The position numbers were made by a program, and so were the translations under genes. From the NCBI GenBank assembly GCA_023212725.1, contig JALBYF010000085.1:1-64000 (forward strand): DNA of 64,000 nt, read 5' to 3'. This stretch comes from Tranzscheliella williamsii. Its lineage: Eukaryota > Basidiomycota > Ustilaginomycetes > Ustilaginales > Ustilaginaceae. Below the pieces are notes generated by a model. That model was not told where the DNA came from and ran no database searches. It saw only the letters and a list, made by a program, of their open reading frames with translations. Positions within the stretch are counted from its first letter, which is position 1. Each line of letters begins with the position of its first letter. Below are positions 15,422-36,800 of the stretch, piece by piece.

Positions 15422-16097
15422 GCCCGGCGCCGCGACTTTTTCCTCTCCTGGCTGCGCTCGCGGTTGCGTAGGCTGGCTCTGGGACCACAAATGGACGTGA
15501 AGAAAAGGGTAGAGGTTGATGGCGAAGGGTGCTGTGGCTGTGGTTGTGACTGCGAACCCAGCTGCCGGCCTCCACTTGACATGAAGGGGAGTTATGTAGC
15601 GACCCCCCTTTTCTCTAAAGCGACACAGGTATTCCCGATTTCTCATCAGAACGCAATGGTCTACTCGTGCATGTGATGCTTCCCTTGTTCACACCTGCTG
15701 GAACTATGTTGTGCTTAAGGATGGTCGCATGAGCTAGGAAAGAGTTACAGCACTGTCATGGCACGACTTTTGTGAAGTCAACAGCCTTCCAAAGCATGTC
15801 GATGAGTAGTCACGGTCATTTGCACGACTTCCATCGGGAGATGCGCTTTTGTGTTCTAGCGTGCAAATCGGGAAAACTGGGTCGTGTTAGCCACCAAAGC
15901 TAGCGCTGCGCAGGCGATGGTCTGTTTTCAATGTTAGACCGGCTTGCGCGTGCTATAAAGATGCCGGTTTGCCACCCGGACTCAGCGCAGCGCCATTCAC
16001 CAACGCTCCTTCCCTCTTTCCTCGGCACAACGTTCGATTACTCTGGTGAGAGCGGGTGTGTCGCTGGGCTGCTGCTCGGTAACAAGCGTCGGTTGCC
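15422..16097. other. Intergenic region upstream of the DUF1992 gene
   Basis: No gene recognised. A TATAAAG motif at 15954-15960, about 140 bases before the ATG at 16098, is a candidate promoter element. Confidence 0.45.
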
Positions 16098-18005
16098 ATG
16101 GGTATTCGCGGCGTGGCGACGCTGGTGGGTTTCACCGCTCCGGCCCGGGCTGTAGGCGCTCAGTTCCACCGCGCCGCTTTCTCCAGCACCGCTCATAAGA
16201 GCGACAGCACACAGACGGCTGCGTCTGCCTCAACGGCTGCGACGGCCGAAGATGCGAATGGGCAGGGGCGTCCATCGCCGTCCTCGTCGGTGTCCGATAC
16301 AGCGTCGTCGGGGCCGGGTGTCGCGGGGCTGACGGGCGCAGATAAGCTCCTGGCCGAGGCGATACTGCTGGAAGAGGAAGAGGCGGCCGTCTTGTCCCGC
16401 AAGGCACGCACGCAGGACCCGAACGATCCCGCATGGACCGGAGAGGAGCGCATCCAGGACACCGTCCTGCGCATGGTTATGGACAAGTACAAGCCGCTCC
16501 GCATCCCGCTCGACCAGGCAGGCACCAAGCATCCCGCCGACCAGAAGCTCAGCGCGGGCATACAGACGCCCTCGGCTCCCGGTCAGTCTGTCGACCAGGC
16601 CGCCTACCTCCCTCTCTCGGCCTCCCTTGCCATGGCCGGCGGCGACGGCCAGCACGAAGATGGCCGCAGGCTGCCCAAGACCCCCGACGCCAAGCCTTGG
16701 CGTGCTGTCTACGTACGCCCGCCGCATCTCATGGGCGCCGGTGCCGCCGAAGACACGCCGTCCGTGCACTATGGCCAGTTCCTGAAACGCTCCTCGTCGC
16801 CCGCCGCGCACAGCTCGTCTTCGGATCTCAGGAGCAAGCTCAAGGCAGCCGGCATCAACCCCTCGCAGCTGCCGCTGGACAACCCGAAAGCTATGACCCA
16901 CCTCCGCCAAGGATTGCGCGCCGCCGAGCGCCGCGGAAAACTGCTCAAAGCCAAGGAGAGTGTCCTTGACTATCAGTTGTCGCGTCCAGCGCAGGCGACG
17001 CCCACCGACGATCCGGAGGCCGATCCGAATCTGCAGCTCCAGCTCGGCCATACGCAGGGGTGGGATAGCGTCGTGGAGAAGCGTATCAAGGCAGCACAGG
17101 ACGCCGGCCTCTTCCGCGAAAACAAACTGCGCGGTAGGCCCATCACGCGCGACATGGAAGAGCGCAACCCGTTCCTGGGCAGAGAAGTGTTTTTCATGAA
17201 CCGGATCGTAAAGCGGCAGGGCGCGGCGCCGCCCTGGGTTGAGCTCAATGCCGAGCTGGAGCGCGAGACCAAGGGCTGGAAGGATAGGCTAGTGGAGAGC
17301 TGGGTGCGAAGAGCCGGTCGCATGATCACCACGTCCGCACAGCTGCGCCACGGCTTGGAACCGGTGCCGCTGTCCGTCTCCGCCTCGCTCGGGGTTTCCC
17401 AGCCAACGTCGACGGCGGTGAATACGCTTAGCGAGGGCCAGCGCGCGCTGCTGGACGTGGCCGCGCGCTATCGCGACCCGGAGTGGGAGGCGCGCGAACG
17501 GTCCTACCACGTTGTCGAGCTGAAGCGGCTCAACGATCTCGTGCGCAAGCACAACCACCTCGCGCCGTTCACCGCGCGCAAGGGGCTCCTCATGCTCGAC
17601 CTCGAGCTGACGGCCATGTACCAGCGCGCGATGCCCTTCCTCGTCGCGCGCGTCTCCGAGATCCTCGTCCAGCAGGCGCACGGCGGGCACGGCGCCACCG
17701 GTGCGCAGTTCGGCCCGGACGACCTGGTCACCGCCCAGCCCACGCCGGGACGGGCGCCCGTGTACGACATCTGGGGCCGAGAGACCGCGCCGACGCCCGA
17801 CAAGGCCGGCCTCTTTGACGGCTGGTTCGGCAACGCCACCGCCGACCGCAGCGACAAGACCGACTCGACGGTTCACGCCGATCCGCAGGCTGACCCGGCC
17901 GACCCGAGTGCGCGCCGCACAACAACGCCAGGCAACGAGCGCCTTGGCTTGCTGGTCGCCCTTCGAAGGAGCGTCGACTGGGCCCGCACGCGTATAGGCT
18001 TGTGA
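16098..18005 (+). CDS. Mitochondrial DUF1992 (DNAJC28 conserved-domain) protein
   Basis: A 635-residue single-exon protein. The N-terminus (GIRGVATLVGFTAPARAVGAQFHRAAFSS) is Arg/Ala/Ser-rich without acids, a mitochondrial presequence look. The central domain, about residues 322-415, starts WDSVVEKRIKAAQDAGLF and continues with KLRGRPI, NPFLGREVFFMNRIVKRQGAAPPWVEL. The 'NPF' and 'QGAAPPWVEL' elements are hallmarks of the DUF1992 domain found in DNAJC28. No J domain (HPD motif) is present. A C-terminal conserved helical part (about 450-540, RYRDPEWEARERSYHVVELKRL-type) follows, then a low-complexity linker. In yeast the related protein is a mitochondrial inner-membrane protein, but the molecular function is not settled. 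Confidence 0.82.
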   Translation: MGIRGVATLVGFTAPARAVGAQFHRAAFSSTAHKSDSTQTAASASTAATAEDANGQGRPSPSSSVSDTASSGPGVAGLTGADKLLAEAILLEEEEAAVLSRKARTQDPNDPAWTGEERIQDTVLRMVMDKYKPLRIPLDQAGTKHPADQKLSAGIQTPSAPGQSVDQAAYLPLSASLAMAGGDGQHEDGRRLPKTPDAKPWRAVYVRPPHLMGAGAAEDTPSVHYGQFLKRSSSPAAHSSSSDLRSKLKAAGINPSQLPLDNPKAMTHLRQGLRAAERRGKLLKAKESVLDYQLSRPAQATPTDDPEADPNLQLQLGHTQGWDSVVEKRIKAAQDAGLFRENKLRGRPITRDMEERNPFLGREVFFMNRIVKRQGAAPPWVELNAELERETKGWKDRLVESWVRRAGRMITTSAQLRHGLEPVPLSVSASLGVSQPTSTAVNTLSEGQRALLDVAARYRDPEWEARERSYHVVELKRLNDLVRKHNHLAPFTARKGLLMLDLELTAMYQRAMPFLVARVSEILVQQAHGGHGATGAQFGPDDLVTAQPTPGRAPVYDIWGRETAPTPDKAGLFDGWFGNATADRSDKTDSTVHADPQADPADPSARRTTTPGNERLGLLVALRRSVDWARTRIGL

Positions 18006-21823: not shown

Positions 21824-24295
21824 CTAACCGATAGGAGCAGACAAAGTGGAGGCGGTCGAGTTGGGCGAGGAGGCTTCGTTGTGGCGGCTCGTCTGCTTGC
21901 GTTGTTCAAGGACGTTCTTGATGAAGAATTCGCCCGCCTTGTAGCTGCTACGCACGAGCGGTCCCGACGCGACGTACAGGAAACCGAGCTCCTCGGCCCG
22001 CTTCTGCCAGTGTTCGAACTTGTCTGGCGACACATACTCCTCCACCTTCATGTGCCGCTTCGTAGGGCGCATGTACTGGCCGAAAGTGACAACGTCGACC
22101 TTGGCCTCGCGCAGATCGCGCAACGTCTGCTCCACCTCGGCGTCCTGCTCGCCGCATCCGAGCATAATGGACGTCTTGGTGATCAGGTCCGGCTTTACCG
22201 CCTTAGCGTGCAGCAGGACTGAGAGTGACTGGCGGTACTTGGCTCGTCGATCACGCACAGACGGCGTTGTCCGCTCGACCGTCTCGACGTTGTGCGCAAA
22301 GACATCCAGCCCCGACTGCGCCACCGTCGCCACGCAGTCTTTGTCACCCGAAAAGTCAGGAACCAGGGCCTCGACTAGGATCGACGGCGACTTGAATTTG
22401 ATCTTGCTGATTGTGCTAGCAATGTGATGTGAACCTCCGTCGGGCATGTCGTCCCGGTCCACAGAGGTCAGAACGATATAGCCCAAGCCCCAGCGCGAGA
22501 TCGCTTCTGCTGTGTTCTCTGGCTCGTGTGGGTCAAGTGGCGCCGGAGCGCGCGATGTTTTGACAGCGCAGAAGCGACAGCCTCGTGTACAGGTATCTCC
22601 CATAATCATAATCGTTGCTGTCGCCGTGTCTTTACCGCCCGAGCCACCCCAACATTCACCGATGTTCGGGCAACGGGCCTCTTCGCAAACGGTGGACAAG
22701 CCGAGACCCCGCAAATCCGACTTGATCCGGGTGTAGTTGGCGCCAGTAGGAATCTTGGTCTTGAGGTGCGACGGCAAACGTGGCTGACCTACACGACCCA
22801 TTTGAACTCGCGACGAAGTAGGCTCGGTAGGCGAATCAGCAAGAATGGTCTCCACATCTCCGTTAGCAAAATCGTCAATGTTGAGATCCGCGGCCAATTT
22901 CTCTCGAAACGCCGCAATACGTGCGGATGGCCGCTTGGCATCCGATGACGTGCTGGCCAAACCGGACGAGCTGTCCCTAGGCGAAGCCGCTGTAGCATAC
23001 AACCTAACGCTTACACCATCCCGACCAGACGAAGGGGCAGCAGCGCCGGAGAAGGACGCACGAGTACTTGCGGACATCGGTGAGCCTGTGCCTCGAGAGC
23101 GTGGCGTGATTTGCGCAGAGTTGATCGTAGGTGGACCCCATTCGCTGTAGTGCTCGCGTTGAAGAGCTTTGCTCATACCCAAGCGCCCTCTCCACCTAGG
23201 CCAATGTACCAACCGTTCGCGCAAATCTTCCAGGTCATGTACAGAGCTTGCAGGTGCGAGAGCAGCACGTAGTAATAAGCGAGTATCGGTGGTCCGCAGA
23301 TTGCCATACCAGTCGCCATGAGGGTAGACAAGCGCATTAGCTGCCCATGCATGACCACCAACGTGACTGATGGAGAAGACCTTTACTTTCTTGGGTGCAT
23401 CTTTACCAGCAGATATGGCCTCGGCCTCGTTGTTCCGCACTTCCCTCTTTAGGCTCTGGTAGACCGCGGTGCCGGCAACGCCACAGCGGCAGTCGCGGGC
23501 GCCATGTGTGCAGACATAGATGTGGGTCTCATCGCCTATCTTAGCACGTCCGGTTTGCGGCTTAGCGCGACTGAGAGCCTCGTCCACCTGCCCTTGGAAA
23601 GCGCCATTCTGATCTAGGGTAGAAAGCGAGACGGGACCAATTTGAGCCATGGTACCGTTGGCGGCGTAGGCAAACACCATGAAGCGCTCCTCTTCCTCAG
23701 CGGTATTTGGCACAGGTCGCATCATCCGAGATGTCGACGGATCCCAAGGTTTGAATGCAGAAGAGGCATCTTCTCTGACCTCGCCCGCCGAAAAGGAAAT
23801 GCCGTAGCCTTCAAGACTGCCGCCTTTTCTGGCACGGCTTTCGAGCTCGGACATGAGGGGGGAAACAGCTTCAAGATGTGACGGCCACGAATCTACAGAC
23901 CTTGAGCGGTCGAACGCGTGGACAACTAGATGAACCTTGTAGGAGGGTGAAGTGCCTGCGAGCGGTAGGGCTGAGTAAGGAGCAGCTGGAATTTGACCAT
24001 TTTCGTCGAGCGCTATGGACAAATCCTGGCCGGAGATAGTCTTCTGCGCTGGTGTTGCATTTCTACGAGTCAAAGCAGATGAGAAGTTGCGACATGGCCG
24101 ATTTGTCGGAGTCGGCCTTGCTCGGCGGTTGAAGCTAGAGGCCAGCGAAGCGGAACTGGAAAGCGAGAGGGTAGCTTGGCTTGTGTAGATGCAAGAATGC
24201 AACGATCGCGAGAACAAGGCACCCCCAACTTTTATAGGTAGAAGCCTGGGCGCCATGGCTCGCACAACACCCGTGTTGGTGGTGAGGCAACTCAT
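21824..24295 (-). CDS. LIP5: Fusion: Aim32/Apd1-like bis-His [2Fe-2S] ferredoxin domain + lipoyl synthase
   Basis: One uninterrupted frame of 823 residues. (1) Residues 1-85: Arg/Ser-rich, acid-free mitochondrial presequence (second ATG at residue 14). (2) About 115-370: thioredoxin-like ferredoxin (sucrase/ferredoxin family) with [11 protein letters not shown], giving C262-x8-C271, and HVGGH, giving H311-x3-H315: the two Cys plus two His expected for the bis-histidinyl [2Fe-2S] cluster of yeast Apd1/Aim32. (3) About 395-460: a low-complexity linker beginning [11 protein letters not shown] (M407) with RLYATAAS, resembling a second presequence. (4) About 465-800: lipoyl synthase, with auxiliary-cluster cysteines C537, C542, C548 ([12 protein letters not shown]), radical-SAM cysteines C569, C573, C576 (CTRGCRFC), and the C-terminal RSSY motif (782-785) whose Ser caps the auxiliary cluster. 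It inserts sulfur into octanoyl-protein in mitochondria. The start is the first ATG, 24293-24295. Confidence 0.93.
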
Positions 24296-24939
24296 GACCG
24301 GTTGCACTAGAGAGCTGATTGGTGGTGGTGGTTAACGAGAAAAGCGGGTGTCACAAGTGGACGATAACCCTTTACATCTGCAACTTCCTACAGCAACCGC
24401 CACCAGCACTTTGCCCCAAAAACTACGCGGACGAACCAAGCCTTGTACAATATTAATTGCTGGATTTGATATTTGAGGTAACTATAGGTTACGAACCTAA
24501 TTGACCGCTGAGAAGGCCGTGATTACGAAATGCTGCGCCATTCTTACGGTAGCGTGTGCTTTCAAGCTTGAATCCTCCGTTCGGCTCTTTCCGCCGCTGC
24601 TGAGCACCAGCCAATATTGGGATCAGCATCGAGGTGGGTGTATAAGCTACACCACGCAAGAGATGGGTAGGTATTATGACGACCTGATGGTCATGCTTCT
24701 GGTTACAAATACAGATAGATCAATGGAAGTAGATGGGGCAAGCGGAACATCCGCCATTCAGACAGCCGCCAGAGCCGAGGCAGTTCAAGTTCACCGCTAG
24801 TCCAGCTCTGCTTACCGACGCCTAGCCACCTGCTTTCGTACAGTGCCTCTTGCAAAGGGCTCCGGATAGCTAGCTAGCTTCAAGACGCTTCTATCAAGGG
24901 CATACGACGAGGTACGGGAACCTAAGTGGCAGACAAGCA
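24296..24939. other. Intergenic region between LIP5 fusion and LEA1
   Basis: Promoter of the lipoyl synthase fusion (reading left) and the 3' end of LEA1. AT-richer around 24430-24500. No gene recognised. Confidence 0.45.
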
Positions 24940-25757
24940 TCATGTCGAAAACGACGTGTGCCCCATCTTGAGTTGTTCCTCCAATTTTCGAATCTCCTCC
25001 AGACTTTCGCTGGCTTCAATGGCCTCTTCGATCGCTTTGCGTTCTTCGGAGGTGAGCAGCCGGCGGCCACCACCATTGACTCTGCCAGGCTGGAAGGTCT
25101 TCTCCTTTGCAGCGTCAATATCCATGTCTGCAGATTCATCGCCCGACGGCTGCAATATGGATGCAGCGACGGCCGACGGCCTACCGTCCGACGTCTCCAT
25201 GAGGTCCTTGGACAGCGCCCGCTCCTACCAAACAGGATAGAAATCATATCGCCCGGTGAGTAATCGCGCGAATCACACCATCTTTGGATACAGCAACGTA
25301 CCTTGTCTTTGATTCGCTGGAAATCTAGTACTCTGACTTGCGGAAGCTTCCAGATGACAAACTCCCTATAGTGCTTCTCACGACTGACAGGGTTTCCCAT
25401 CAGGCTGAGGTATTCCAATTGCGAGCATTTGGAAAGGTGGACGAGTTCGGACAGCTCTGCTATTGAGTTGTTCGTCAACGTCAGCGACTGCAGTGCCGGT
25501 AATGAGAAGCCCAGTCTCGCATCGATACGGCTTATGAGATTGTTGCTGAGTCGAAGGTGTTTGAGCTGCTGCAACAATGGGAAGTTACCGAGAAACCGAA
25601 TGTCGTTGTCCGTCAAGTCAATGCTGTCATTCTGATCCTTGGTGACGCCAAAGTTCTCGATCGCAGGGATCTTCAGCCCGCGCAGATCAAGCTCTCGATC
25701 TTTGAGAGTGTTGATGTACGGTGTGCTCCGAGACAGGAGCTCTGGCGTGATCTTCAT
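24940..25757 (-). CDS. LEA1: U2 small nuclear ribonucleoprotein A'
   Basis: Leucine-rich-repeat protein of the U2 snRNP that, with U2B'', binds stem-loop IV of U2 snRNA during branch-site recognition. Model: complement(join(24940..25224, 25302..25757)), 246 residues, typical of the family. Exon 1 has MKITPELLSRSTPYINTLKDRELDLRG-type sequence with the U2A' N-terminus, IDLTDNDIRFLGNFP, LRLSNNLISRID, LTLTNNSIAELSEL, YLSLMGNPVSREKHYREFVIWKLPQVRVLDFQRIK: the LRR set and cap. Exon 2 joins in phase as DK-ERALSKDL and contains an acidic and then a helical C-terminus. The 77-base intron uses GTACGT and a TAG acceptor. A read-through into the intron would give an unrelated tail. Confidence 0.93.
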
Positions 25758-27376
25758 TGATAGTTGTTAGAGACTTATCCGGGCCTTGACCATACGCTCC
25801 TCCACAACACTGTCCCAATCGTTACTATTTGGTGGCTTGCTGATCTTCAGGCTTGGTGATGTGACCCTTTTGCTAGCAGATGGATGATACAGTGGCCGTA
25901 GATATGCTGCACGTCCTCAGCTCTGCTGTGTAATGCCTTTGATGTAGGGAGTGGTGAGTTGAGAAGCATTCACGGTTCAGTTGCCCTCCCGCTTCTTAGG
26001 TGGAGAAGAACGCACCCCGATGGAGGTTGAGGTCTTGTCACGTGCTGGTCTTCTTCCGCCTTTTATTCGCAATAATTCTCCTCTTCGTGTCCTCTCAAAC
26101 AAAAATTGCGCGGATTTGATATAAGCCCGACAGAACCTAGCTCTCGTTCGTTCCTTCTTCCCTATCATCCGCTTCTCAGCAATCATTTTCGTCAGTCTCC
26201 TTCTCTACCACAGCACTTCCCGTCCTGGCTCCTATTCTTCCCAGCATATCAGCGGTCGAGTTGGGGCTTCGGCTGGAAGCTGTGTATCAGTCTGTGTTAT
26301 CGACTTCCTTTTCGGTTCTTGCCCGCCATTCAACTGCCAAGAGCTACGCCCTACTCTTTCTTCGTTGTCCTTGCTTGTGTCTGTTCTTTTCCCTTTCTGC
26401 CACCTTCCTCCCTCTGATACTCCATCCTACACCCTTCTTCGGACCCATTCTGCCCGCTTTGCGCTCTCCTAAGCCGTAGCGGTTCCTGGTGAGGGTCCTA
26501 CAACAAATCATCTTTCTTCACGGAGAGAAGGGGCATATTCATCTGTTCGGCGACCTACACATTAGTCGGGCAGGTGGGTGTGTCAGCTGAGCCTGTCTTG
26601 TCTGCGGCTTTACTGGCCTCGGAAGTTTAGCTCTCTGTTCGTTACTGTAACAGGTGCGGAGTTTGTGGAGAGCTTTCTTTCTTGTCGGCAGAGTCCTAGG
26701 CAGGCTTGCCACATTTTTTCCACAACTTGTTCGTGCTCCTGCCATTGTATGCCTTTTGCCTGTTACCTCTATTCACTGGTCTCGGATCGCCCTAGCTTGA
26801 CACACATAATAGCGATTAACGCTGCTTTATTGCTGGACGGTAGAGACCGTGTATGTACAACTGAGAAACCGCGATAGCGTACAACCTAGATACTGTTGCC
26901 TAGAAGGCCCGTGAGCATGCTGAACAAAGGGAGGAGAACTCTGTGATGGTAGTGATACCGGACTATCAGCGCCCAGGTTGACTGGAGTTGTCCCGATAGG
27001 ATCGGGCATATCGCCGGTATGGAGGTCTATGTCTCGGCGCACCGGAGAGGAGAATCGTATCAGCGGGAAAGGGAGGGAACGGGCGGGCAGGCAAATCGGC
27101 GAGATTGGAGCCGATCGGCGATGGCAGGAGCAGAGGAGATGAGAGGCGAGAGGAAAGGGAAGCGAGGCTCGCGCTAGAGTGACACGCGAGTCCGGGGGAA
27201 ATAGGGCTGTGCACCTGTGCACAGATCGGCACGCAACGCTAGCGTCACCTGCCCGAAGCTCGAAACTAACGCGCGGGCGTATGACTCGGGCGCGAACCCT
27301 TCTTAATCATAAAAGATAAGATGCGCTTTAGGCCTTCCACCTTGGATACCTCTACATACCGAGCTAGGCCAAAAGC
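25758..27376. other. Long intergenic region with strand-switching pyrimidine bias
   Basis: 1.6 kb between divergent genes LEA1 and the MFS gene. The plus strand is pyrimidine-rich from about 26130 to 26480, and purine-rich from about 27040 to 27180, suggesting 5' leaders of transcripts on both strands. A candidate small minus-strand gene is listed separately. No homologous gene recognised. Confidence 0.4.
26827..27009 (-). CDS. Candidate small ORF of 60 residues
   Basis: ATG at 27007-27009 on the minus strand, product beginning MPDPIGTTPVNLGADSP. It is preceded by about 140 bases of CT-rich minus-strand sequence like local 5' leaders, and AATAAA lies at the stop. The product has no recognised domain. 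It could be the first exon of a spliced gene or a non-coding transcript; the evidence is only composition and position. Confidence 0.2.
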   Translation of the reverse strand: MPDPIGTTPVNLGADSPVSLPSQSSPPFVQHAHGPSRQQYLGCTLSRFLSCTYTVSTVQQ

Positions 27377-28915
27377 ATGAACAGTGACTCTGTAACACGG
27401 CTGAGCATGGAGAGAAGCGCCTCCCTTCCACAAGATGGCTCAGCAAAGAGGTGCCCCCGAAACGACGCCAAAGGAGGTCACTCTTCCCCTGTTGGCACCA
27501 TCCTCCTGACAAGACCGGCTTTTGATATGGAAGCGGCGACGGCTGTTGCTCCACCGCTACAAGGCCGTGCCGCCGTCGTGCCATCGGATCATGTACCGGC
27601 CCTATCGCAGAGCACGATTGTGCTTCTCTTTAATTTTTTGCTTAACGTCACCTTCTTCATCATCGTGCCCACCTCTGCTTCTTACGCCAACGAACTAGGG
27701 GCCTCGACATGGTTCTCAGGCTTGACGATCGGCATCAGTACCTTCATCGCCGGGATCTTCCTTGTTCCTTTTTCCAAACGGTACTCGAGGTCGTATCGAT
27801 TCCCTTTCCTGTTCAGCACGGTCTGCTTTCTTGTCGGCGAGATCGTGTACGCCCTTGCAGGGGTGGCTGACACAGCATGGCTCATGTTCGCCGGGCGCTG
27901 CATCATCGGCGCTGGGTTCGTTAGCTGGATGTACGTCAAGAAGTACATGACCGACGCCGAGATCGTGGGAACATCGAAGAGAACAATGATGTCGGCTTGT
28001 CTCGTCACAACGCAGGCCTGCGGAATGGCGGTCGGACCTTTTGTGGGAGGACTCTTATCGAAGGAGATCCAGCCTATGACGGATACCAACAGGCTCTGGA
28101 ACGGTTTTACAGCTTCCGGATGGCTGATGGCTGGTGTCTGGACCTTTTGCTTTGCTCTGACATGGTGCCTCTTCCACGATCCCACACCGCGACAAGTGAC
28201 GAATCTCGCTCTGGATACGCTGCAGGGAGGTACGGCACCAATCCCGCTGAAGGAGAGACCGCGGGATCCCACGCTCAAGTCGATGGCCCGCGAGCTCAAC
28301 TGGACGCAAAAGTTCTCGGTATTCACCATGTCTTGGTTCAGCATGGTAAACTTCCTCGTCCTGGGAGCGTGGGAAACCAACATCCCAGTCTTCGGCCACC
28401 TCCGATTCGGCTGGTCCGAGTATAATGCAGGAAATGTGATTGCTTTGGGTGGGATCGCAACGATGCCGATCCTGTTTGCGCTGGTTTTCGCTGCGCGGTA
28501 CCTGCAAGATCGAATGATACTGGCGGCGGGTCTGCTGTTCGGCCTGCTTGGCCTCTCGCTTCATATGGGCACGCTGGAAAGCCCGGCCAAGTCGGCCGTA
28601 GCACTGCTGGGCAACAGTCCGGTCAACTTTGGCTCATTCTTCACATCTTGGTTCATGGTGGCACTGGGCTACAACATGCTTACCACCATCACGCTATCGC
28701 TGCTCTCCAAGCAGATCCCCAACAAGTACAATGGGCTGACATCGACAGTGATTCAGCTGAGTAACTATACAGGGCGTATCACGGGCGCGCTGTGGGGATC
28801 TACCGTCTATCAAGTGGGTCAATTTGGCATAGTTTCGCTCGAGTTGGCAGTGACTCTGATCGGAGCCTTCCTCGTTGGCTTCATGTGGCGCCAAATCGAC
28901 GTCCAAAGGGGTTGA
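27377..28915 (+). CDS. Major facilitator superfamily transporter
   Basis: A 512-residue membrane protein with a 70-residue hydrophilic N-terminus, then 12 predicted helices. The first begins TIVLLFNFLLNVTFFIIVPTS. WFSGLTIGISTFIAGIFLVPF and RFPFLFSTVCFLVGEIVYALAG follow, with MFAGRCIIGAGFVSW as the MFS motif B-like GRxxxGxG region, and ACLVTTQACGMAVGPFVGG as the motif C-like segment near helix 5. A long cytoplasmic loop (about 260-310) separates the halves; the second half includes MILAAGLLFGLLGLSLHMGTL. Substrate cannot be told: the general layout resembles the MFSD8-like and SPX-MFS relatives in fungi, without an SPX domain. The stop is followed by two strong palindromes (see findings). Confidence 0.85.
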   Translation: MNSDSVTRLSMERSASLPQDGSAKRCPRNDAKGGHSSPVGTILLTRPAFDMEAATAVAPPLQGRAAVVPSDHVPALSQSTIVLLFNFLLNVTFFIIVPTSASYANELGASTWFSGLTIGISTFIAGIFLVPFSKRYSRSYRFPFLFSTVCFLVGEIVYALAGVADTAWLMFAGRCIIGAGFVSWMYVKKYMTDAEIVGTSKRTMMSACLVTTQACGMAVGPFVGGLLSKEIQPMTDTNRLWNGFTASGWLMAGVWTFCFALTWCLFHDPTPRQVTNLALDTLQGGTAPIPLKERPRDPTLKSMARELNWTQKFSVFTMSWFSMVNFLVLGAWETNIPVFGHLRFGWSEYNAGNVIALGGIATMPILFALVFAARYLQDRMILAAGLLFGLLGLSLHMGTLESPAKSAVALLGNSPVNFGSFFTSWFMVALGYNMLTTITLSLLSKQIPNKYNGLTSTVIQLSNYTGRITGALWGSTVYQVGQFGIVSLELAVTLIGAFLVGFMWRQIDVQRG

Positions 28916-29009: not shown

Positions 29010-30779
29010 ACGGCAAACCCCCAACTAGCTAGACCCACTGTCTTCACCATCGCTCACACCACACGCTCCTTCCGTAGTGTACATATATATCACATGAGGG
29101 CAGAGCCCGCTGTCGTAACCGTAATCGAAGTCCGTTTATTCTAACAGATCTAAGCTCACAGTTTCAGCTGTACTAGCCACGCGTCACACCTCACGACCTT
29201 ACAATTGGCGGCCGGGGCATGGTCCTGTTCGCAGACTGTCCTATTCTGGTGTACTCGCCATGTCGGCTTCGGCTTCCATCTCCACCTCTTATAAGAGATC
29301 TAGATTTGTGCTACTGTGCCTGCCGATTTGGACCAACCCCAGCTGCCTAGGGCCGCCCACATTGCCACTGCTAAAGATAACAGCGTGAGCCGCCACGCAA
29401 CAGATTACGTGCCGAGCATGCTTTCACACTCTCCCTTTGTACTTGGCCTGGTGAGACTGAAACAGTGATGCAACGGCAAGTGCAACCCCGCTAGTTGTCT
29501 GTTGTTTCCAAGCAATTTGCCAATCGTGAATGCGTTCACAGTCAGAGCCACAGTAGCCAACAAGTGGCACATCTATCGAGCAGGCGGCCAAGCGAGGACC
29601 CCTATCGCCGTGAGAAAATTACAATCAACACAAATGCAACGCGCTCGGAACGCCCCGTCTGCGGCCTAGAGCCCTGCTGGCTATGGACCACGAGATGGCA
29701 AAGGCCCGCGTCGGCCAGCCCCACCCAGGCTCGTGTCACAAGACAGATATCCATGATCATTGGCGCAGCCCGCACGCTCGATCATCTTGCTCGTTCGTTC
29801 TAAAGCCCCGCCAGTCAAGCCCCGCAGGAGCATAATATCAGCGAGCGCCAGTCGCGGCATCCGGGTTTTCCGGACACAGTACCAGCTCGTTTCTAGGCAC
29901 CGCATTGTCAATGCGAGATGTTTGTATCATGGGATCTCCGGTTCCCAGTTACAGATAGCCTTGATCAAAGCTAATGAACACCAACTGTCAACATCTCTCC
30001 CAACAATCCCCAGAAGATGACGCAATTGGCCCTGAAGCTATCATTTGACCTTGGTGCCGACGCAGCTACGGGTGCGGCTAGAGGCAGAGGCGGCGAGCTC
30101 CGAACCGAATACTTATTTCGGCCTACCCGTTTTGTCGCATCATCGTGATGCGATGGTGGCGGGCAATGCATATATAACTATCGATCGCGGCCTTGAGTCT
30201 CTAAAAGCTGGGTTACACCGAGCGTGCGTATCTGAATGTTCGTCGTGTGGCGAAGGATGGCTAGGTGCTGCACTCTGGGGAGTAGAGCAAGCTGCATATT
30301 CCCATGGCTCCGTTAGCAGAGTGCAGTGTGAGTAGGCGAAATGCATATTGTGGATGCATGCATGCACGTCAAGCGAAAGATCAAAAACGAGGCGCAATTA
30401 CAGGACGACCCCAAAAGGAAAAGCTAGATGGAGATGAATGACTTTAATTCCAGGCGTGCCTACGATACGCTCCACAGCATCCATACACACTCCCACTCAC
30501 ACTGACTTCTGTGGATAAGTGTCTATTTCTGCTTCATAGCGCCTCTCCTCCGTACAGCATCGACCTTCTTTCAGATCATCCTGACCGTGCCGCATTCACA
30601 CGATCGTGGTGTCTATATAGCTGAACTGAATCGTTCTCGCCCTCAGCAGCAGGCTCCGTCCATCATCTTGCCGAACGAAGCAGTCGACCTCACCCGACAG
30701 AGCAAGCTCAACATGACTTTTTGTGGATTCGCTTCGTTCTAGCTTCAGCAAACGACTGTCCGTATATCCTTTACGCCTC

Positions 30780-33665
30780 ATGACCACATTGGTTGCCACC
30801 ATGCCCATCCAACCAGCTCCGAGAAGGTTCGAGGCCGACGAGGAGTCGCCGAACTCGTCGGCTTTCGACACGCCCGTCTCGTCACCCTCTGGCCAGCATA
30901 CGCCAGCTGCTGGCTACAAAACCGCCGCCGGCACGCTGTCGACCGTGTTTGCTTCCCTGTGGGGAACCTACAATCAACAGCAACATGAAGCCGGCCCTTC
31001 GCGATCTCCCACCCTTGCGCAACCCCAGCAGCCGGCCCAGCATATTCCTTCGGTTCCGGGCGGATGGGGAAACTTGCTGAGCTGGGGTCCAGCTGCAGCG
31101 CGCCAGCAAAGGCAACAACAGCCACAGGGTGCGGCGCCAAAGGCCTCTGCATCTCCTACTCGCTCCAGCGGTGCTCACCGTGCCAAAGCCAGAGGTGCCA
31201 TCCCTTTCAATATCTCTGCACCTTTGCACGACTCCTCGGGCCTAACAGCTGACCCAGACACGGCCGACGTCTCCTTTGCTGATGCATCCTCCTTACACAA
31301 GTCACCCCACGCATCACCGAGGAGAAGGCCCCTACAAGGCCTTTTTGACGATACGGCTGCCGTGTCGTCTTCGCCAACTGCTGTCCGGTCGCCCGCGTCC
31401 CCCGGTAAAGCCCGGGAGTTGCCAGGAAGCCCAATGTCCCCAAGGATTGAGTCCCCAAGTGGAGCCTATGCTACATTGTCTCGTTTACAGCCAAAGCCTA
31501 CCAAAGGCCCGTTGCGCTCCGGCTCAGGCTTCCTCCGGGGTCCCAATCCTGTCAACTCGGGCGACTGGCTTTCTTCCCCAGCGCAGAAACCCGCTGCAAA
31601 CTGGAGCGAAGCCATAGCTCGTGCCGAAAAGCTCGATTCTTACGTCCGGCGGATAGTGTTTCAGGCTGGTCTGGACTTCGAAACGCGTCCCATGGTGGTT
31701 TTGGCCGCTTGCTGTCTACCTGATCCCAAAGAGGTCGATTACGACGCCTTGCTCGAACGCATCATGGACACCATGGACCTCTTTGTCGAAAATGACTATA
31801 CTGTCATCTATTTCGCTGGAGGCGGCCGACATCGGCCGGGATGGAATTGGATCTGGCGAGCATATCGACGTCTAGACCGCAGATTTCGCAAGAATCTGAA
31901 GAAGCTCTACATTGTCCATCCCACCTTCTTTACCCGGTCCTTGATGCAATTCGTCAACACAGGCGCGTACTTTATCTCGCCCAAGTTCTCAAAGAAGGTT
32001 TCTCAGCTGTATTCCCTCAGTGCTTTGGCGGAACATGTGCCATTGACGCAAATCGACATTCCACCCGAGGTCCTGCAGTGGAATCTCAAATACGAGAAAC
32101 AGGTAACGATAACGCAAAGAGAAGCGAGCTTAACCGGCGGCAAGGCGGCGAACAGGGTGTTTGGCGTTGATCTGGTGCACTTGATGGGAGAATACGGCGA
32201 GTGCGGCGGCATACCACGGGTCGTCCGGGACTGTGTCGAGGCTATCCTGGGCGACTTTGACGGCGTACGGCCCGCACAGGTCGAAGGCATCTTCAGACGA
32301 TCTCCCTCCTCAGCTCTACTTAAAACGGCACAAGAAAGCTATGACCGAGGACATCCCGTCAGTCTAGCTCAATACCGTGATCCACACATTCCCGCGGTGC
32401 TGCTCAAGGTATTCTTGCGGTCGTTACCAAGACCGATCTTCCCTTCGAGTATGTATGGACTGATCAGAGCCTGTCCAAGCCCTCCCGTGCCTACTGCCAG
32501 CGCCGACAAGTCTTACGAAGGCCAAGCTCAAGAAACGATCGACTATCTTCGAACGAAACTGCTCCCTGCCATCCAGCCTGCCTGCTACGGCATTCTCCTG
32601 TCCTATACGCTCGAAATGCTCCACAAGGTGTCTCAGCATCGAGAGGCGAACAAAATGGACGCTGCGAACCTGGCCACCGTGATTGCGCCTAATCTGGTGT
32701 CGAGCGGTAATGCCCTCAAGGACATGCTTATCTGCAAGGTCGAAGGCATCGGATCGATGGCGGATTCAGCGACTGCGCCCACGGCACCACATAACCGGGA
32801 TGCATCCATCTCCTCGACCCTCGAGGGACAGTCGACCACGCTGGGCTCCCTCTTGCGATTCTGTATCGAGCGCTACTACGAGATCTTTGACGAGCTGAAC
32901 GTAGATGCGCCGGTCGGTCTGGCCCAGGAGCTGGTGGACGACTTTAGCCGGGAGGAAGACAGCCGGTCTCCCTCGTTACAGAGCCGCTTCTTGCCGACGT
33001 CGCACGACGCGACGAGTACGGGTCTTGGGCTCGAGCATCGACGTGTCCTGCACCGACGCGGGGACTCGTTGGCGTCGGCCACCTCGGGCCTGTCATTCTC
33101 GCAGCCTTGCTCGCCCCGGGTGGGCGGAGTGGCGTCGAGTGGTGCTGACGATGACGAGGACTGGCGATCGACGGCTGCATCGCGCAGCGTCACGTCGCGG
33201 GATGGCTACCGCGCGGCGGGTGGTGTGCACCGCGGCACGATTGGGCGGAACTCGTCCGGCTCGCTGCGGCTTACCAAGGGGCGGTTGGGGTCGAACACGA
33301 ATCTCCGCGGCGGGTTTACGCCCTGCACTGGCTCGAGTCTCTCGCGGGCGGGCGGTAGCGGCCCGGCGCCGTCCGTCGCTTTGCCGAGCGAGGGACTAAC
33401 CTCGCAGCTGAGCGGCGTGGCCCTGACCGGTGCCAACGCGACCGCCATGTTCAGCTCGCCGCTTGCCGAGCGCACGCTGCAGCCGGAGGCCGCGCTGGCC
33501 TCCAGCCCCCCGCCCGCCCGCCGCGGCGAGTTCACCCCGCCCCCCACCTCGCCTGACGCGCCCGTGCCCGCCCCGGACCCACACGCACACCCGCTCTCGC
33601 GCCACAAGTCGCTCCGACGAGAACTCTCCGAAGTCGCAGAGGCCGACGACCCCGAAGACCCCTAG
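30780..33665 (+). CDS. CRAL-TRIO (BCH) + RhoGAP domain protein
   Basis: Likely GTPase-activating protein for a Rho-type GTPase, 961 residues. The first 280 residues are disordered, Ser/Pro/Ala-rich. About 285-438 is a divergent Sec14/CRAL-TRIO (BCH) domain: PMVVLAACCLPDP, DYTVIYFAGGG, LYIVHPTFFTRSLMQF and FISPKFSKKV followed by LSALAEHVPLTQIDIPPEVL. About 459-655 is the RhoGAP fold: FGVDLVHLM, then GGIPRVVRDCVEAI, the arginine-finger element EGIFRRSPSS near 500-510, IPAVLLKVFLRSLPRPIF and NKMDAANLATVIAPNLV. The remaining 300 residues are low complexity. The architecture equals p50RhoGAP/ARHGAP1 and yeast Ecm25. The first ATG in frame is at 30780; a second at 30801 is equally possible. Confidence 0.9.
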   Translation: MTTLVATMPIQPAPRRFEADEESPNSSAFDTPVSSPSGQHTPAAGYKTAAGTLSTVFASLWGTYNQQQHEAGPSRSPTLAQPQQPAQHIPSVPGGWGNLLSWGPAAARQQRQQQPQGAAPKASASPTRSSGAHRAKARGAIPFNISAPLHDSSGLTADPDTADVSFADASSLHKSPHASPRRRPLQGLFDDTAAVSSSPTAVRSPASPGKARELPGSPMSPRIESPSGAYATLSRLQPKPTKGPLRSGSGFLRGPNPVNSGDWLSSPAQKPAANWSEAIARAEKLDSYVRRIVFQAGLDFETRPMVVLAACCLPDPKEVDYDALLERIMDTMDLFVENDYTVIYFAGGGRHRPGWNWIWRAYRRLDRRFRKNLKKLYIVHPTFFTRSLMQFVNTGAYFISPKFSKKVSQLYSLSALAEHVPLTQIDIPPEVLQWNLKYEKQVTITQREASLTGGKAANRVFGVDLVHLMGEYGECGGIPRVVRDCVEAILGDFDGVRPAQVEGIFRRSPSSALLKTAQESYDRGHPVSLAQYRDPHIPAVLLKVFLRSLPRPIFPSSMYGLIRACPSPPVPTASADKSYEGQAQETIDYLRTKLLPAIQPACYGILLSYTLEMLHKVSQHREANKMDAANLATVIAPNLVSSGNALKDMLICKVEGIGSMADSATAPTAPHNRDASISSTLEGQSTTLGSLLRFCIERYYEIFDELNVDAPVGLAQELVDDFSREEDSRSPSLQSRFLPTSHDATSTGLGLEHRRVLHRRGDSLASATSGLSFSQPCSPRVGGVASSGADDDEDWRSTAASRSVTSRDGYRAAGGVHRGTIGRNSSGSLRLTKGRLGSNTNLRGGFTPCTGSSLSRAGGSGPAPSVALPSEGLTSQLSGVALTGANATAMFSSPLAERTLQPEAALASSPPPARRGEFTPPPTSPDAPVPAPDPHAHPLSRHKSLRRELSEVAEADDPEDP

Positions 33666-33857: not shown

Positions 33858-36800
33858 TCAGGCAAAAACGCCGCGCGCAGCGCGGCGTGCGTTTTCGCGG
33901 CGGACGGCGTCGGCGGATTTGGAGGCGATCTCGATGAGGCGGCCGATGAGCGGGGTGCGGTCCCAGTCGGCGCGGTGGGTCCAGATCGCGTTGAAGCAGG
34001 CGGCGCGGAGGCGCGAGAGCTGGTCGATGCTGTACTCGCCCGTCGAGGCGAGGATGTGGCGGTGGAGCGCCGCGAAGGCCTCCTGGTCGTAGCTGAACTG
34101 CGGATGCGGCGCCGCCTCCGCCGCTGGCTCCACCGCCTCCACCGAGACTCCTGCCGCAGGGACGGCGACCGCCTCGGCTTTGACGCCTTCCCCCGCCTCC
34201 GCCGCGGGCTGCGGAGTGCCCGGGGAGGCGGTGCGATCCGCCAGCCGCGCACGCTTCCGCGACTCGTCGTCCGTCGCCTCAGCGGGCAGCGCGCTGACCT
34301 CGCTCGGCTTTACAGCCCCCGTCGATGGCTTGGCCTCGGGCGTGCCCAGCGCCGGCGATGCCAGCGACTCGATCTGGCGAGACGTGCTCCGCTGCCGCTT
34401 GTTCGCCCGCTCAATAGCAGCAAGATCCGCAGGCACCGACACCTCGGGCTCGATCCCGGCGATTCGGGCGCTGGACCTTTCGCCCTTGGCGGTCTCGGCC
34501 GCTTTCTTCGCCGCCTCTTCCGCCGAAGCCTTGGCTTTTTCGGTCGCTTGCTGCGCCTCCTGCTCGCGGGCCATCTGCCGCTGCGCCATCCGATCGCATT
34601 CTTCCCGGAAGCCTGCGTCGATGTACTGGTCGAGCAGCACGATGGCCAAGTTGCGCATCTGATGGGCACGGAAGACGCGATCCTGGTCGACCTCGCCTGC
34701 CTCCTCGGCATTTTCCACAATCTTCTGCACGTCTTCCATGAACGACGAGATCGACAGATAGCCGTTGTAGTAGAGCCGCTTCTGCATCTTTTCCAGATTC
34801 ATCGTCCAGATGGGCATCGTGCGAGTGAAGGTGGCATCGTTGACGTCTTTATTGGCGCTAACGGCAGAATCGGTGGAAACGCCCTCAGGAGCAGCAACAA
34901 CGTCGTTTTCCCCGGTGCCATTCGGTTGCAATGGCGGAACAACGTCGGACAAGGGTAGCTGGGCGGCACCTTCGCCTTCGACGCCTCCGTTCACGGCAGC
35001 CGTTATAGCGATGGCTTCGCCTTCCGGATTGGCCATGTTGACATCGTCGCCGGCCGCATCCACGGGCTCGGCTTGCGTAGAGGCGTCCGGCAAGATCTCT
35101 TCCGGCCCGGGTGTCGGTGTCCCCATGAATTGCGCGGCTGTGATCCCTTTCTTGGCTGCAATATCGCCTTGGGTCTGCAGCATCCCGTTGACGTCGTCTG
35201 CATCGTCCTCCACCGCGGACGGCTGCGGCTGCGCATCTTGGCCGTACCGGTAGTATAAAAGTTCGACGGTGATCTTGCCTTTCTCGCGCTTCCATGGGAA
35301 CTGCTGCGTCAAGTCGCGCAAGTTGTACTCATCCCACACGTCACGCGTGAACTTCTTGAACTTTTTCCTCAGCTCGGCAAGCACGGGACCGAGTCGGTAC
35401 TTGAGGTGTTCCAGTAGTTTCGAGTCGCTCTCGGCCTGTTGCTGCAGCTCGGCCTGGGTAAGTTTTCGCGGCGCACGCGGGGGCGCTTTCGGCAGGTCCT
35501 CCAGGATACGTTTGCGGCGCGGCAAGGCATCCGGAAACTCTGTTGGAGGCCGGATAACGTGATCAAAGATCTCCTTGAAGTAGTCCTGCCGCTGCTCTAA
35601 TGTGGGTTTAGCTATCTCTACCACGTCGTCTTCCAGGAAGTTGAACCAGGACTGCACCTCCTCGTCGAGCTCATCTAAGGGGGATTCTGCAATGCCGAGC
35701 AGCATCACGGGGTCGGCATCGGTAAGACCGTCGAGCAAAGCCTTGAACGTGGTCTTGACGCTCTCCGACACGGATCGCGCCCAGTGCACAATGCCGGGGA
35801 TGTACAAGACGCTTGGCTTGTGTCGTTTGGCCTCCACGAACAACTGAATGATGGCAGCTTCCGGTGTCCGTGCACTGTCACCCAGTAAAGTGCCGATGTC
35901 CATGGACTGCACATGGTAGCCTTCCAAATGCTGGAGTAAAGCAGCACCTACTGCCCCTTGGCCCATACCAACGTCGCCATGCACTAGCATCCGTGGCCGG
36001 TATACCCTCTGTGCTTCGAATGACTGCAAGAGCACTTCGCGACCGAAACCACGATCGCCACCGAGCCTGTCTGAAGCAGACAAACCTGACGCCAGACCCT
36101 TTGGCATAAAGACATCGTCCTCCCACAGCGCTTCCTCCAGAGGATTGCGCTTTGTAACAGGTGGCAGAATCCGGTCCAACACGCCAATGGCATGCTGCAC
36201 TACGTTACCGAGCAACGGCGCAAGCCTCTCGGGAAGAGGCGCTGCCGCAGACGCGGTGGCTCGTGCCGAAGAAGGCACGATTTTGTTGACAGACATCATG
36301 AAATCCTTGGCGTCGACCTGGATCGAGGCGGGGTCCAGGAGCAGCCGATCAGTTGTAGTGTAGATCTGCGGATATCTTCGCTGAACGGCATTGAGAGCAG
36401 CCTCGGTGCATAGGGCCCGCAAATCAGCACCTCCATAACCTTTGGTGACCTCTGCCAGTTTTAACTTGAACTCGTCGTCCAGAGGGGGTTCCCACTTGCT
36501 GGTATGAATATTGATGATGCTCCTACGTGCTTCGAGGGAAGGCAGAGGGAAGTAGAATTCGCGATCGAATCGACCGGGCCTACGCAAGGCGGGATCAACG
36601 CTGTCCGGTCGATTTGTTGCGCCGATAACGACGACTTGACCTCGGCCATCCATGCCATCCATCAAGGCCAACATGGTGCTGACAATACTTGCGTGGATCT
36701 GATCTTGCTTGCTGGATCGGACGGGGGCGAGACCGTCGATTTCGTCAAAGAAGATGATGCTTGGCTGCGAGTTCCTGGCTTCTTCAAACAGCAGCCGCAG

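What the first reader, a model, noticed from the sequence alone, without database searches (positions are those of the whole stretch)
21824..24295. Aim32/Apd1-like [2Fe-2S] domain fused to lipoyl synthase
Seen: one 823-residue frame holds a complete thioredoxin-like ferredoxin (C262-x8-C271 with H311-x3-H315) followed by a complete lipoyl synthase with both cysteine triads (C537/C542/C548 and C569/C573/C576) and the RSSY motif. Known: Apd1 and Aim32 bind a [2Fe-2S] cluster through two Cys and two His; lipoyl synthase is a radical-SAM enzyme that needs reducing electrons and destroys its auxiliary [4Fe-4S] cluster each turnover. Inference: the fused domain may feed electrons to the SAM cluster or assist cluster rebuilding, a built-in partner for an enzyme whose physiological donor in fungi is unclear. 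I am not aware of a description of this fusion, but cannot check.
Basis: partly seen in the sequence, partly recalled or inferred. Interest (0 to 1): 0.86.

Follow-up and report, generated by a model that had tools for sequence, protein, structure and literature searches.

The report
Two mitochondrial enzymes, one cleavable precursor
In smut fungi and close relatives one gene encodes two mitochondrial iron-sulfur proteins end to end (an Aim32-type ferredoxin and lipoyl synthase), with what looks like a built-in cutting site between them; sister fungi carry a second ferredoxin in place of the lipoyl synthase, which points to a testable link between Aim32 and lipoic acid synthesis.

Summary
The fusion is real. 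One uninterrupted 823-residue frame (21824-24295, minus) holds an Aim32/Apd1-type bis-His [2Fe-2S] domain and a complete lipoyl synthase. Searches of the genome found no second copy of either. Twenty other listed protein clusters have the same fusion, 11 from named Ustilaginomycetes, and the 17 fusions put in a tree form one clade: a maintained event, not a gene-model error. Two results change the reading. (1) The disordered linker carries R-x-[YF]-A-T in 20 of 21 fusions; no such motif occurs in 11,937 residues of their domains or in 25 linkers of a sister fusion. It resembles the presequence end of stand-alone lipoyl synthases. Likeliest product: a tandem mitochondrial precursor cut by MPP/Icp55 into two proteins, like Arg5,6 or Rsm22-Cox11. 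(2) In Malassezia, Ceraceosorus and Pucciniomycotina the same Aim32 domain is fused to an adrenodoxin-type ferredoxin, the kind that reduces lipoyl synthase in humans; the smut lineage has lipoyl synthase there instead. Cleavage and function are inferred, not shown. Observation confirmed; interpretation partly supported.

The parts
21824..24295 (-). AIM32-LIPA tandem gene, 823 codons plus stop, no intron needed
   Evidence: other fusions
24083..24295 (-). predicted N-terminal mitochondrial presequence, residues 1-71 (disordered, basic)
   Evidence: R69-N-F-S-S motif; first 45 aa net charge >=+3 with <=1 acidic in 18 of 18 fusions examined; pLDDT <50 for 1-91
24077..24091 (-). R69-N-F-S-S, candidate first processing site (mature end at about S72)
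   Evidence: inference from the Icp55 consensus in PMC8847149 (passages)
23249..23962 (-). Aim32/Apd1-type thioredoxin-like ferredoxin domain (PF06999)
23483..23512 (-). C262-x8-C271 cluster ligands (first codon to last codon)
   Evidence: motif as in PMC8482512 section 7
23351..23365 (-). H311-V-G-G-H315 cluster ligands
22940..23131 (-). disordered linker, residues 389-452
   Evidence: pLDDT <50; length and sequence vary among fusions
22991..23005 (-). internal processing motif R431-L-Y-A-T435; predicted MPP cut after L432, Icp55 removes Y433, lipoyl synthase starts at A434
   Evidence: 20 of 21 fusions; column entropies; 0 hits in 11,937 domain residues; shuffled linkers 0.27%; 0 of 25 AIM32-ferredoxin linkers
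22670..22951 (-). LIAS_N domain of lipoyl synthase
22652..22687 (-). auxiliary-cluster cysteines C537/C542/C548
22112..22609 (-). radical SAM domain
22568..22591 (-). SAM-cluster cysteines C569/C573/C576
21941..21952 (-). RSSY motif 782-785
   Evidence: serine ligation of the auxiliary cluster stated in PMC11138216 (passage)

Best explanation
The gene encodes a tandem mitochondrial precursor: presequence, Aim32-type [2Fe-2S] protein, second presequence-derived segment, lipoyl synthase. SHOWN by sequence: one frame, both domains intact, no second copy found, one clade among the fusions examined, and a conserved R-x-[YF]-A-T motif in the disordered linker, of the kind with which many stand-alone lipoyl synthases end their presequence. 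INFERRED: after import, MPP removes the N-terminal presequence (near residue 71) and cuts the linker after R431-L432. Icp55 trims Y433, giving an Aim32-type protein (72-432, 38.9 kDa) and a lipoyl synthase (434-823, 42.3 kDa) in equal amounts in the matrix. INFERRED, weaker: the pairing is kept because the Aim32 protein serves lipoyl synthase. It would do so either by keeping the cysteines of the cluster-less enzyme reduced between turnovers or as a relay next to the adrenodoxin-type ferredoxin, which in sister fungi is fused to the same Aim32 domain.
For: Motif: in the 20 fusions with a readable linker, R, A and T occur in 20/20 and Y or F in 20/20, while most flanking columns vary. R.[YFL][AS][ST] has 0 hits in 11,937 domain residues of the same proteins; shuffled linkers carry it at 3.4% and R.[YF]AT at 0.27%. 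It is absent from 25 of 25 AIM32-ferredoxin linkers examined, of 30 such proteins. Stand-alone lipoyl synthases carry R-x-[YFL]-[AS]-[ST] somewhere before the catalytic part in 17 of 34 rows of related lineages (25 of 34 with a looser pattern; 36 given, 2 too short) and in 126 of 164 other rows, for example RRGLASEA in Tilletia, RTLAT in Sympodiomycopsis and RPFAT in Parajaminaea. The stretch before the motif has net charge >=+3 and <=1 acidic residue in 17 of 20, against 1.2% of 1,866 domain windows. Linker pLDDT <50. Precedent: MPP cuts Arg5,6 internally, with motifs also found in Etp1 and Rsm22-Cox11 (PMC8847149 passages); Rsm22-Cox11 is cleaved after import (PMC12375894 passage). For function: AIM32-ferredoxin fusions; FDX1 as LIAS donor; yeast Aim32 loss raises aberrant disulfides, and MPP cuts its N-terminus (PMC8482512, abstract and sections 5, 7, 9).
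Against: No transcript, protein size or N-terminus was seen. The linker is not more amphipathic than domain windows (mean helical moment 0.25 against 0.36); the N-terminal presequences themselves score only 0.33 on this crude measure, so it neither supports nor excludes an internal import signal. The 20 fusions are related, so motif conservation is not 20 independent events, and a few neighbouring columns (A or V before the R; A in 18 of 20 two after the T) are also conserved. One of 21 rows (P0021, garbled there) lacks the motif. Half of the related stand-alone lipoyl synthases lack the strict motif. In this species an in-frame 81-nt or 114-nt splice could in principle remove the motif. The functional link rests on domain pairing; tandem precursors such as Rsm22-Cox11 can join unrelated proteins.
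Confidence: 0.66

Rival explanations
1. The protein stays fused and the Aim32-type domain works in cis as electron donor or cluster-repair partner of lipoyl synthase.
For: Aim32 ligand motif present in 19 of 20 and lipoyl synthase motifs in 19 of 20 fusions checked (exceptions are P0019, an odd gene model, and P0018, truncated). Long flexible linker.
Against: Conserved processing motif in the linker, resembling the presequence end of stand-alone lipoyl synthases. A bis-His centre is expected at a potential too high to reduce the SAM cluster directly (recalled).
Confidence: 0.18
2. The fusion is functionally neutral: two mitochondrial proteins share one precursor and one promoter, are cut apart and have unrelated functions, as Rsm22 and Cox11 appear to have.
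For: Known tandem precursors join unrelated proteins (PMC12375894 passage). Yeast Aim32 is described in general redox and import quality control, and the partners named in the section I read do not include LIP5 (PMC8482512 section 9). AIM32 and LIP5 only co-occur in a long Nfs1 pull-down list (PMC5675994 passages).
Against: In sister fungi the same Aim32 domain has another fusion partner, an adrenodoxin-type ferredoxin, the type that serves lipoyl synthase in humans. The fusion is seen in 11 named Ustilaginomycetes of the list, with at least Urocystidales and Violaceomycetales besides the smuts proper.
Confidence: 0.35
3. Two proteins are made by internal initiation or from two transcripts, so the open frame is never translated through.
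For: The window has an internal ATG (M407), and an internal Met lies between Aim32 domain and motif in 6 of 20 linkers.
Against: 14 of 20 fusions have no Met there. The frame is open through the linker in the 20 rows with a readable linker.
Confidence: 0.05
4. Assembly or gene-model artefact.
For: Gene callers do merge neighbours; P0034 looks like a chimeric contig.
Against: One frame without any intron in the window DNA, and the same join in 20 other protein clusters.
Confidence: 0.01

Closest known systems
Mitochondrial tandem precursors cut by MPP (Arg5,6 of S. cerevisiae; Etp1 and Rsm22-Cox11 of S. pombe)
   Same: N-terminal presequence, first protein, internal segment with a processing motif, second protein; Etp1 also carries an adrenodoxin-like ferredoxin part (PDB title).
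   Different: Other protein pairs; cleavage here is predicted only, and the internal segment is basic but not amphipathic above background.
Aim32/Apd1 bis-histidinyl [2Fe-2S] proteins (PF06999)
   Same: CX8C and HX3H ligand motif, basic N-terminus; yeast Aim32 is cut by MPP in vitro (PMC8482512 section 5).
   Different: Mostly about 240-310 aa and unfused in the mushroom-type fungi listed; here followed in frame by lipoyl synthase.
AIM32-adrenodoxin fusions of Malassezia, Ceraceosorus, Sporobolomyces, Rhodotorula, Leucosporidium, Microbotryum (found here)
   Same: Related Aim32 domain; most Ustilaginomycotina members share the tail WGPP....A..TPR.R before the join.
   Different: C-terminal partner is a [2Fe-2S] ferredoxin, and the linker lacks the processing motif (0 of 25 examined).
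Mitochondrial lipoyl synthase LIP5/LIAS
   Same: Both cysteine triads, RSSY, 66% identity over 296 aligned columns to human LIAS 8ugo.
   Different: Normally its own gene; here second half of a precursor.
Bacterial LplA-LipA fusion (NCBIfam NF053790)
   Same: Another fusion with lipoyl synthase as C-terminal part.
   Different: Partner is a ligase, not a ferredoxin; the window protein is far below that model's cut-off (320.9 against 800 bits).

Membership tests
Aim32/Apd1 bis-His [2Fe-2S] family | PF06999 domain | tested here: met
   96.2 bits against cut-off 34.9
Aim32/Apd1 bis-His [2Fe-2S] family | CX8CXnHX3H ligand motif | tested here: met
   C262, C271, H311, H315; 19 of 20 fusions
Aim32/Apd1 bis-His [2Fe-2S] family | bound [2Fe-2S] cluster with two His ligands | not testable with these tools
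   needs spectroscopy
Lipoyl synthase | equivalog model TIGR00510 | tested here: met
   422.4 bits against 310.25
Lipoyl synthase | auxiliary and SAM cysteine triads and RSSY serine | tested here: met
   model matches human LIAS 8ugo, E 3.2e-35
Lipoyl synthase | catalytic activity | not testable with these tools
   no experiment; only copy found in the genome
MPP-processed tandem mitochondrial precursor | N-terminal presequence | tested here: met
   basic, acid-poor N-terminus in 18 of 18 examined (P0013 and P0020, cut short, dropped), R69NFSS; no trained predictor was available
MPP-processed tandem mitochondrial precursor | internal MPP/Icp55 motif between the two proteins | tested here: met
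   R-x-[YF]-A-T in 20 of 21 fusions; controls
MPP-processed tandem mitochondrial precursor | internal targeting-like segment, basic and amphipathic | tested here: inconclusive
   basic in 17 of 20, but helical moment 0.25 against 0.36 background; the measure does not single out the N-terminal presequences (0.33) either
MPP-processed tandem mitochondrial precursor | two separate mature proteins in mitochondria | not testable with these tools
   needs immunoblot or N-terminomics
Permanent bifunctional redox fusion | domains joined without a conserved cutting site | tested here: not met
   conserved motif in the linker, unlike the AIM32-ferredoxin fusions; whether the motif is cut is not known

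The most novel reading that the evidence does not exclude
Aim32 is a dedicated partner of the ferredoxin-lipoyl synthase step in basidiomycetes. The ancestral Aim32-adrenodoxin bidomain protein of Malassezia and Pucciniomycotina serves lipoyl synthase, and in Ustilaginomycetes the ferredoxin module was exchanged for lipoyl synthase itself. Aim32 is then delivered one-to-one with the enzyme and protects or reduces its cluster-ligand cysteines at each turnover, while the one adrenodoxin-type ferredoxin found in the genome supplies the electrons.
Probability: 0.3. Interest if true: 0.82.

Novelty: new variant of a known kind. Interest (0 to 1): 0.64.

Why it matters
Aim32 is a conserved mitochondrial [2Fe-2S] protein whose main client is, as far as I know, not settled, and lipoyl synthase uses up its auxiliary cluster at every turnover. 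Two fusions of the same Aim32 domain, one with an adrenodoxin-type ferredoxin and one with lipoyl synthase, give a concrete, cheap hypothesis: test lipoylation in aim32 mutants. The predicted internal cut would also add a deeply conserved natural case of internal processing by MPP, with the donor presequence still recognisable. It bears on annotation too: databases call the whole chain, and several AIM32-ferredoxin proteins of Malassezia, 'lipoyl synthase'.

Tried and rejected
Separate AIM32 or LIP5 genes: none found in the genome. Internal start: rejected as a general mechanism, because 14 of 20 linkers have no Met. Hidden intron: a GTAAGC at 23014 could be a donor; in frame it would pair with AAG (81 nt) or GAG (114 nt), both weak acceptors, and only 2 of 20 fusions have the valine codon that such a donor needs at that place, so not a general feature, but not excluded in this species. 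Amphipathic internal targeting signal: not supported, by a measure that also fails on the N-termini. Gene neighbourhoods of AIM32 in other fungi: no eukaryotic contigs were reachable. The viral scan found no relative; the genome scan (one pattern) gave four bacterial loci without lipoyl synthase at E<=1e-3 in the DNA held. A close stand-alone lipoyl synthase (P0122, 416 aa, starts inside the linker) might be a split gene; a contig that begins in the linker is simpler, but I could not check. P0123 and P0124 look N-terminally truncated. Lipoyl synthase tree (quick, 46 chosen rows): fusions group with P0122 and P0124, weak support (91), so single origin rests on the AIM32 tree. That tree used 57 chosen rows; of the 21 fusions P0013, P0019, P0020 and P0021 were left out, and it warns of long branches among mushroom rows. 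The fusion model is weak around residues 470-580 (pLDDT about 50; pTM 0.47), so domain contacts were not read from it. Of the four Fer2 matches in the genome, two sit in long frames (1546 and 771 aa) and one is below the cut-off; I did not identify these three. One review (PMC7140478, passages) describes the S. pombe ferredoxin fusion as Yah1 with Arh1; that Etp1 is a Cox15-ferredoxin fusion is my recall, and I used only its ferredoxin part. Literature: no account of this fusion in the listings (6 papers, 5 listed; 14, 13 listed; none; 4, 3 listed; 47, 20 listed; 75, 25 listed), all of an open-licence library; absence there is not proof.
Full report
WHAT IS THERE. The minus-strand frame 21824-24295 is open for 823 residues. 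It contains Suc_Fer-like PF06999 (112-349), LIAS_N (449-542) and Radical_SAM (563-728), each above Pfam's cut-off, and scores 422.4 bits with the lipoyl synthase equivalog TIGR00510 (cut-off 310.25). Sequence search of solved structures matches mitochondrial lipoyl synthase 8tsk over residues 465-800 (445 bits); Foldseek with the predicted model gives human LIAS 8ugo, E 3.2e-35, 66% identity over 296 columns. In the window's genome (18.18 Mb, 135 contigs, unnamed) there is one PF06999 match at E<=10 and one LIAS_N match at E<=0.001, both in this gene.

WHO HAS IT. A database search with the whole protein scored 7,993 candidates, kept 411 and listed 120. Twenty of the 120 carry all three domains. 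Eleven bear fungal species names: Ustilago trichophora, U. loliicola, U. hordei, Sporisorium graminicola, S. reilianum, S. scitamineum, Melanopsichium pennsylvanicum, Pseudozyma flocculosa, Moesziomyces antarcticus, Thecaphora frezii and Violaceomyces palustris. One (P0021) is filed under a plant, Cichorium; its closeness to the Moesziomyces protein suggests contamination (inference). Eight are unnamed. Thecaphora (Urocystidales) and Violaceomyces (Violaceomycetales) were looked up as Ustilaginomycetes; the placement of the others in Ustilaginales is recalled. Tilletia, Malassezia, Tilletiaria, Jaminaea, Sympodiomycopsis, Microstroma and Ceraceosorus have lipoyl synthases without the Aim32 domain in the lists. 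In a tree of the AIM32 domain (57 chosen rows; four of the 21 fusions left out) the 17 fusions form one clade (100/97), inside a clade with the AIM32-ferredoxin proteins of Ustilaginomycotina (100/99). A quick lipoyl synthase tree agrees but weakly (91).

THE LINKER. Between the Aim32 domain and lipoyl synthase lies a disordered stretch (389-452, pLDDT <50) that varies in length and sequence. One short motif hardly varies: R-x-[YF]-A-T, in 20 of 21 fusion rows including the window (the exception, P0021, is garbled there). In the 20 rows R, A and T are invariant and the third position is Y (19) or F (1), whereas most of the 46 columns looked at have entropies of about 2-3 bits; A or V before the R and A two places after the T (18 of 20) are also conserved. 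The pattern R.[YFL][AS][ST] does not occur in 11,937 residues of the domains of the same 20 proteins; shuffled linkers carry it at 3.4%, and R.[YF]AT at 0.27%. The motif fits the two-step rule of MPP (arginine at -2) and Icp55 (removal of one Y, F or L before A or S) as stated in PMC8847149 (passages). Stand-alone lipoyl synthases carry the same kind of motif ahead of their catalytic part: 17 of 34 rows in my hand-picked set of related lineages (25 of 34 with a looser pattern; 36 given, 2 too short), and 126 of 164 other rows. So the linker is most simply the old lipoyl synthase presequence, now internal. Before the motif the sequence is basic and poor in acids (17 of 20, against 1.2% of 1,866 domain windows). 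It is not more amphipathic than background (0.25 against 0.36), but neither are the N-termini by this crude measure (0.33). The N-terminus of the chain passes the charge test in 18 of 18 (two rows with cut N-termini dropped), and in the window has its own R-N-F-S-S site.

THE SISTER FUSION. Searching with the Aim32 part alone (6-sequence profile) kept 450 proteins and listed 120. Of these 120, 30 carry a C-terminal ferredoxin motif C-x5-C-x2-C...[RKQ]L-x-[CA]Q, 65 end within 35 residues of the Aim32 domain, and 25 are fragments or unclear. The 30 include Malassezia, Ceraceosorus, Sporobolomyces, Rhodotorula, Leucosporidium and Microbotryum (names). Pfam sees Fer2 above its cut-off in 7 of 10 proteins scanned. 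The piece from P0229 matches adrenodoxins, the yeast adrenodoxin homologue and bacterial ferredoxins of that class in the PDB, and the P0229 model has two folded domains with a 28-residue disordered joint. Of 30 such proteins, 25 linkers were examined and none has the processing motif. In most Ustilaginomycotina members the joint follows the same Aim32 tail, WGPP....A..TPR.R, as in the lipoyl synthase fusions. In the window's genome the P0229 ferredoxin finds one match, which reads CEGSIACSTCH...DDENDMLDLA and by recall looks like Yah1. It is 28-36% identical to five AIM32-linked ferredoxins, which are 38-57% identical to each other. The Fer2 profile finds three more places, two in long frames and one below cut-off, which I did not identify. 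Parsimony on the tree, rooted on Pucciniomycotina, suggests that AIM32-ferredoxin came first and that in Ustilaginomycetes the ferredoxin module gave way to lipoyl synthase; the order of branches at that point is unresolved, and the absence from mushroom-type fungi needs a separate loss.

HOW IT MOST LIKELY WORKS. Shown: gene structure, domains, motif, distribution. Inferred: translation as one precursor, import, removal of residues 1-71, internal cut after L432, trimming of Y433, and release of a 38.9 kDa Aim32-type protein and a 42.3 kDa lipoyl synthase (masses). Internal cutting by MPP is known for Arg5,6, and such motifs were noted in Etp1 and Rsm22-Cox11 (PMC8847149 passages; PMC8835746 passage; PMC12375894 passage). 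The primary papers were not held. Function is less certain. Human FDX1 donates electrons to LIAS, whose auxiliary cluster must be reloaded at each cycle (PMC10470009 passages). Yeast Aim32 lies in matrix and intermembrane space, its N-terminus is cut by MPP, and its loss raises aberrant disulfides (PMC8482512 abstract and sections 5, 7 and 9). I therefore think it most likely that Aim32 guards or reduces the cysteines left bare, or relays from the ferredoxin, rather than reducing the SAM cluster itself. That bis-His centres have too high a potential for the latter is recalled, not tested.

WHAT SPEAKS AGAINST. There is no protein or RNA evidence. The fusions are relatives, so the motif's conservation could be partly inertia, though most neighbouring columns have changed. 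Some tandem precursors join unrelated proteins, so the pairing alone does not prove a shared task. In yeast, AIM32 appears in Nfs1 and Yfh1 pull-down lists and LIP5 in the Nfs1 list, but these lists are long (PMC5675994 passages). One close stand-alone lipoyl synthase (P0122) may be a truncated contig or a real split. A species-specific splice that removes the motif is possible on paper.

NOVELTY. I found no account of the AIM32-LIPA or the AIM32-adrenodoxin fusion in searches (listings, partly capped; the library holds open-licence papers only). Each half is a member of a known family, and tandem mitochondrial precursors are known. The pair, the retained presequence as internal cutting site, and the exchange of ferredoxin for lipoyl synthase are new to me.

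Noticed in passing
P0229-P0247, P0265-P0281: Aim32 domain fused to a C-terminal adrenodoxin-type ferredoxin in Malassezia, Ceraceosorus and Pucciniomycotina; two different [2Fe-2S] domains in one chain. Used in the argument, but a finding of its own.
   Followed up: partly
P0234, P0244, P0247, P0260 (Malassezia), P0246 (Ceraceosorus): AIM32-ferredoxin proteins without a lipoyl synthase domain are named 'lipoyl synthase' or 'related to lip5' in the databases, apparently by transfer from the smut fusion.
   Followed up: partly
P0043, P0049, P0061: Rhodotorula lipoyl synthases of 855-865 aa carry PF05063 (MT-A70 by recall) in three clusters; real fusion or merged gene models.
   Followed up: no
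P0056, P0059, P0083, P0086: Four mushroom lipoyl synthases are annotated with PF01200 (ribosomal S28e by recall); the recurrence suggests close neighbouring genes or a real tandem.
   Followed up: no
P0034: Short-contig protein joins the Aim32 domain to part of a U2A'-like protein, whose gene lies just upstream in the window, i.e. in the reverse order; probably a chimeric contig.
   Followed up: partly
window 24894-25766 (-): Upstream neighbour on the same strand: LRR_9 protein, by recall U2 snRNP A' (Lea1)-like.
   Followed up: partly
window 1419-3314 (+), 16083-18005 (+), 27368-28915 (+), 30717-33665 (+), 33858-38246 (-): Other genes by Pfam: FGGY sugar kinase, DNAJC28-like protein, MFS transporter, CRAL-TRIO/RhoGAP protein, AAA ATPase.
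   Followed up: no
window 22901-23014 (-): A GTAAGC next to the processing motif could serve as a splice donor; in-frame acceptors AAG (81 nt) and GAG (114 nt) would remove the motif. The donor codon (valine) is present in 2 of 20 fusions only.
   Followed up: partly
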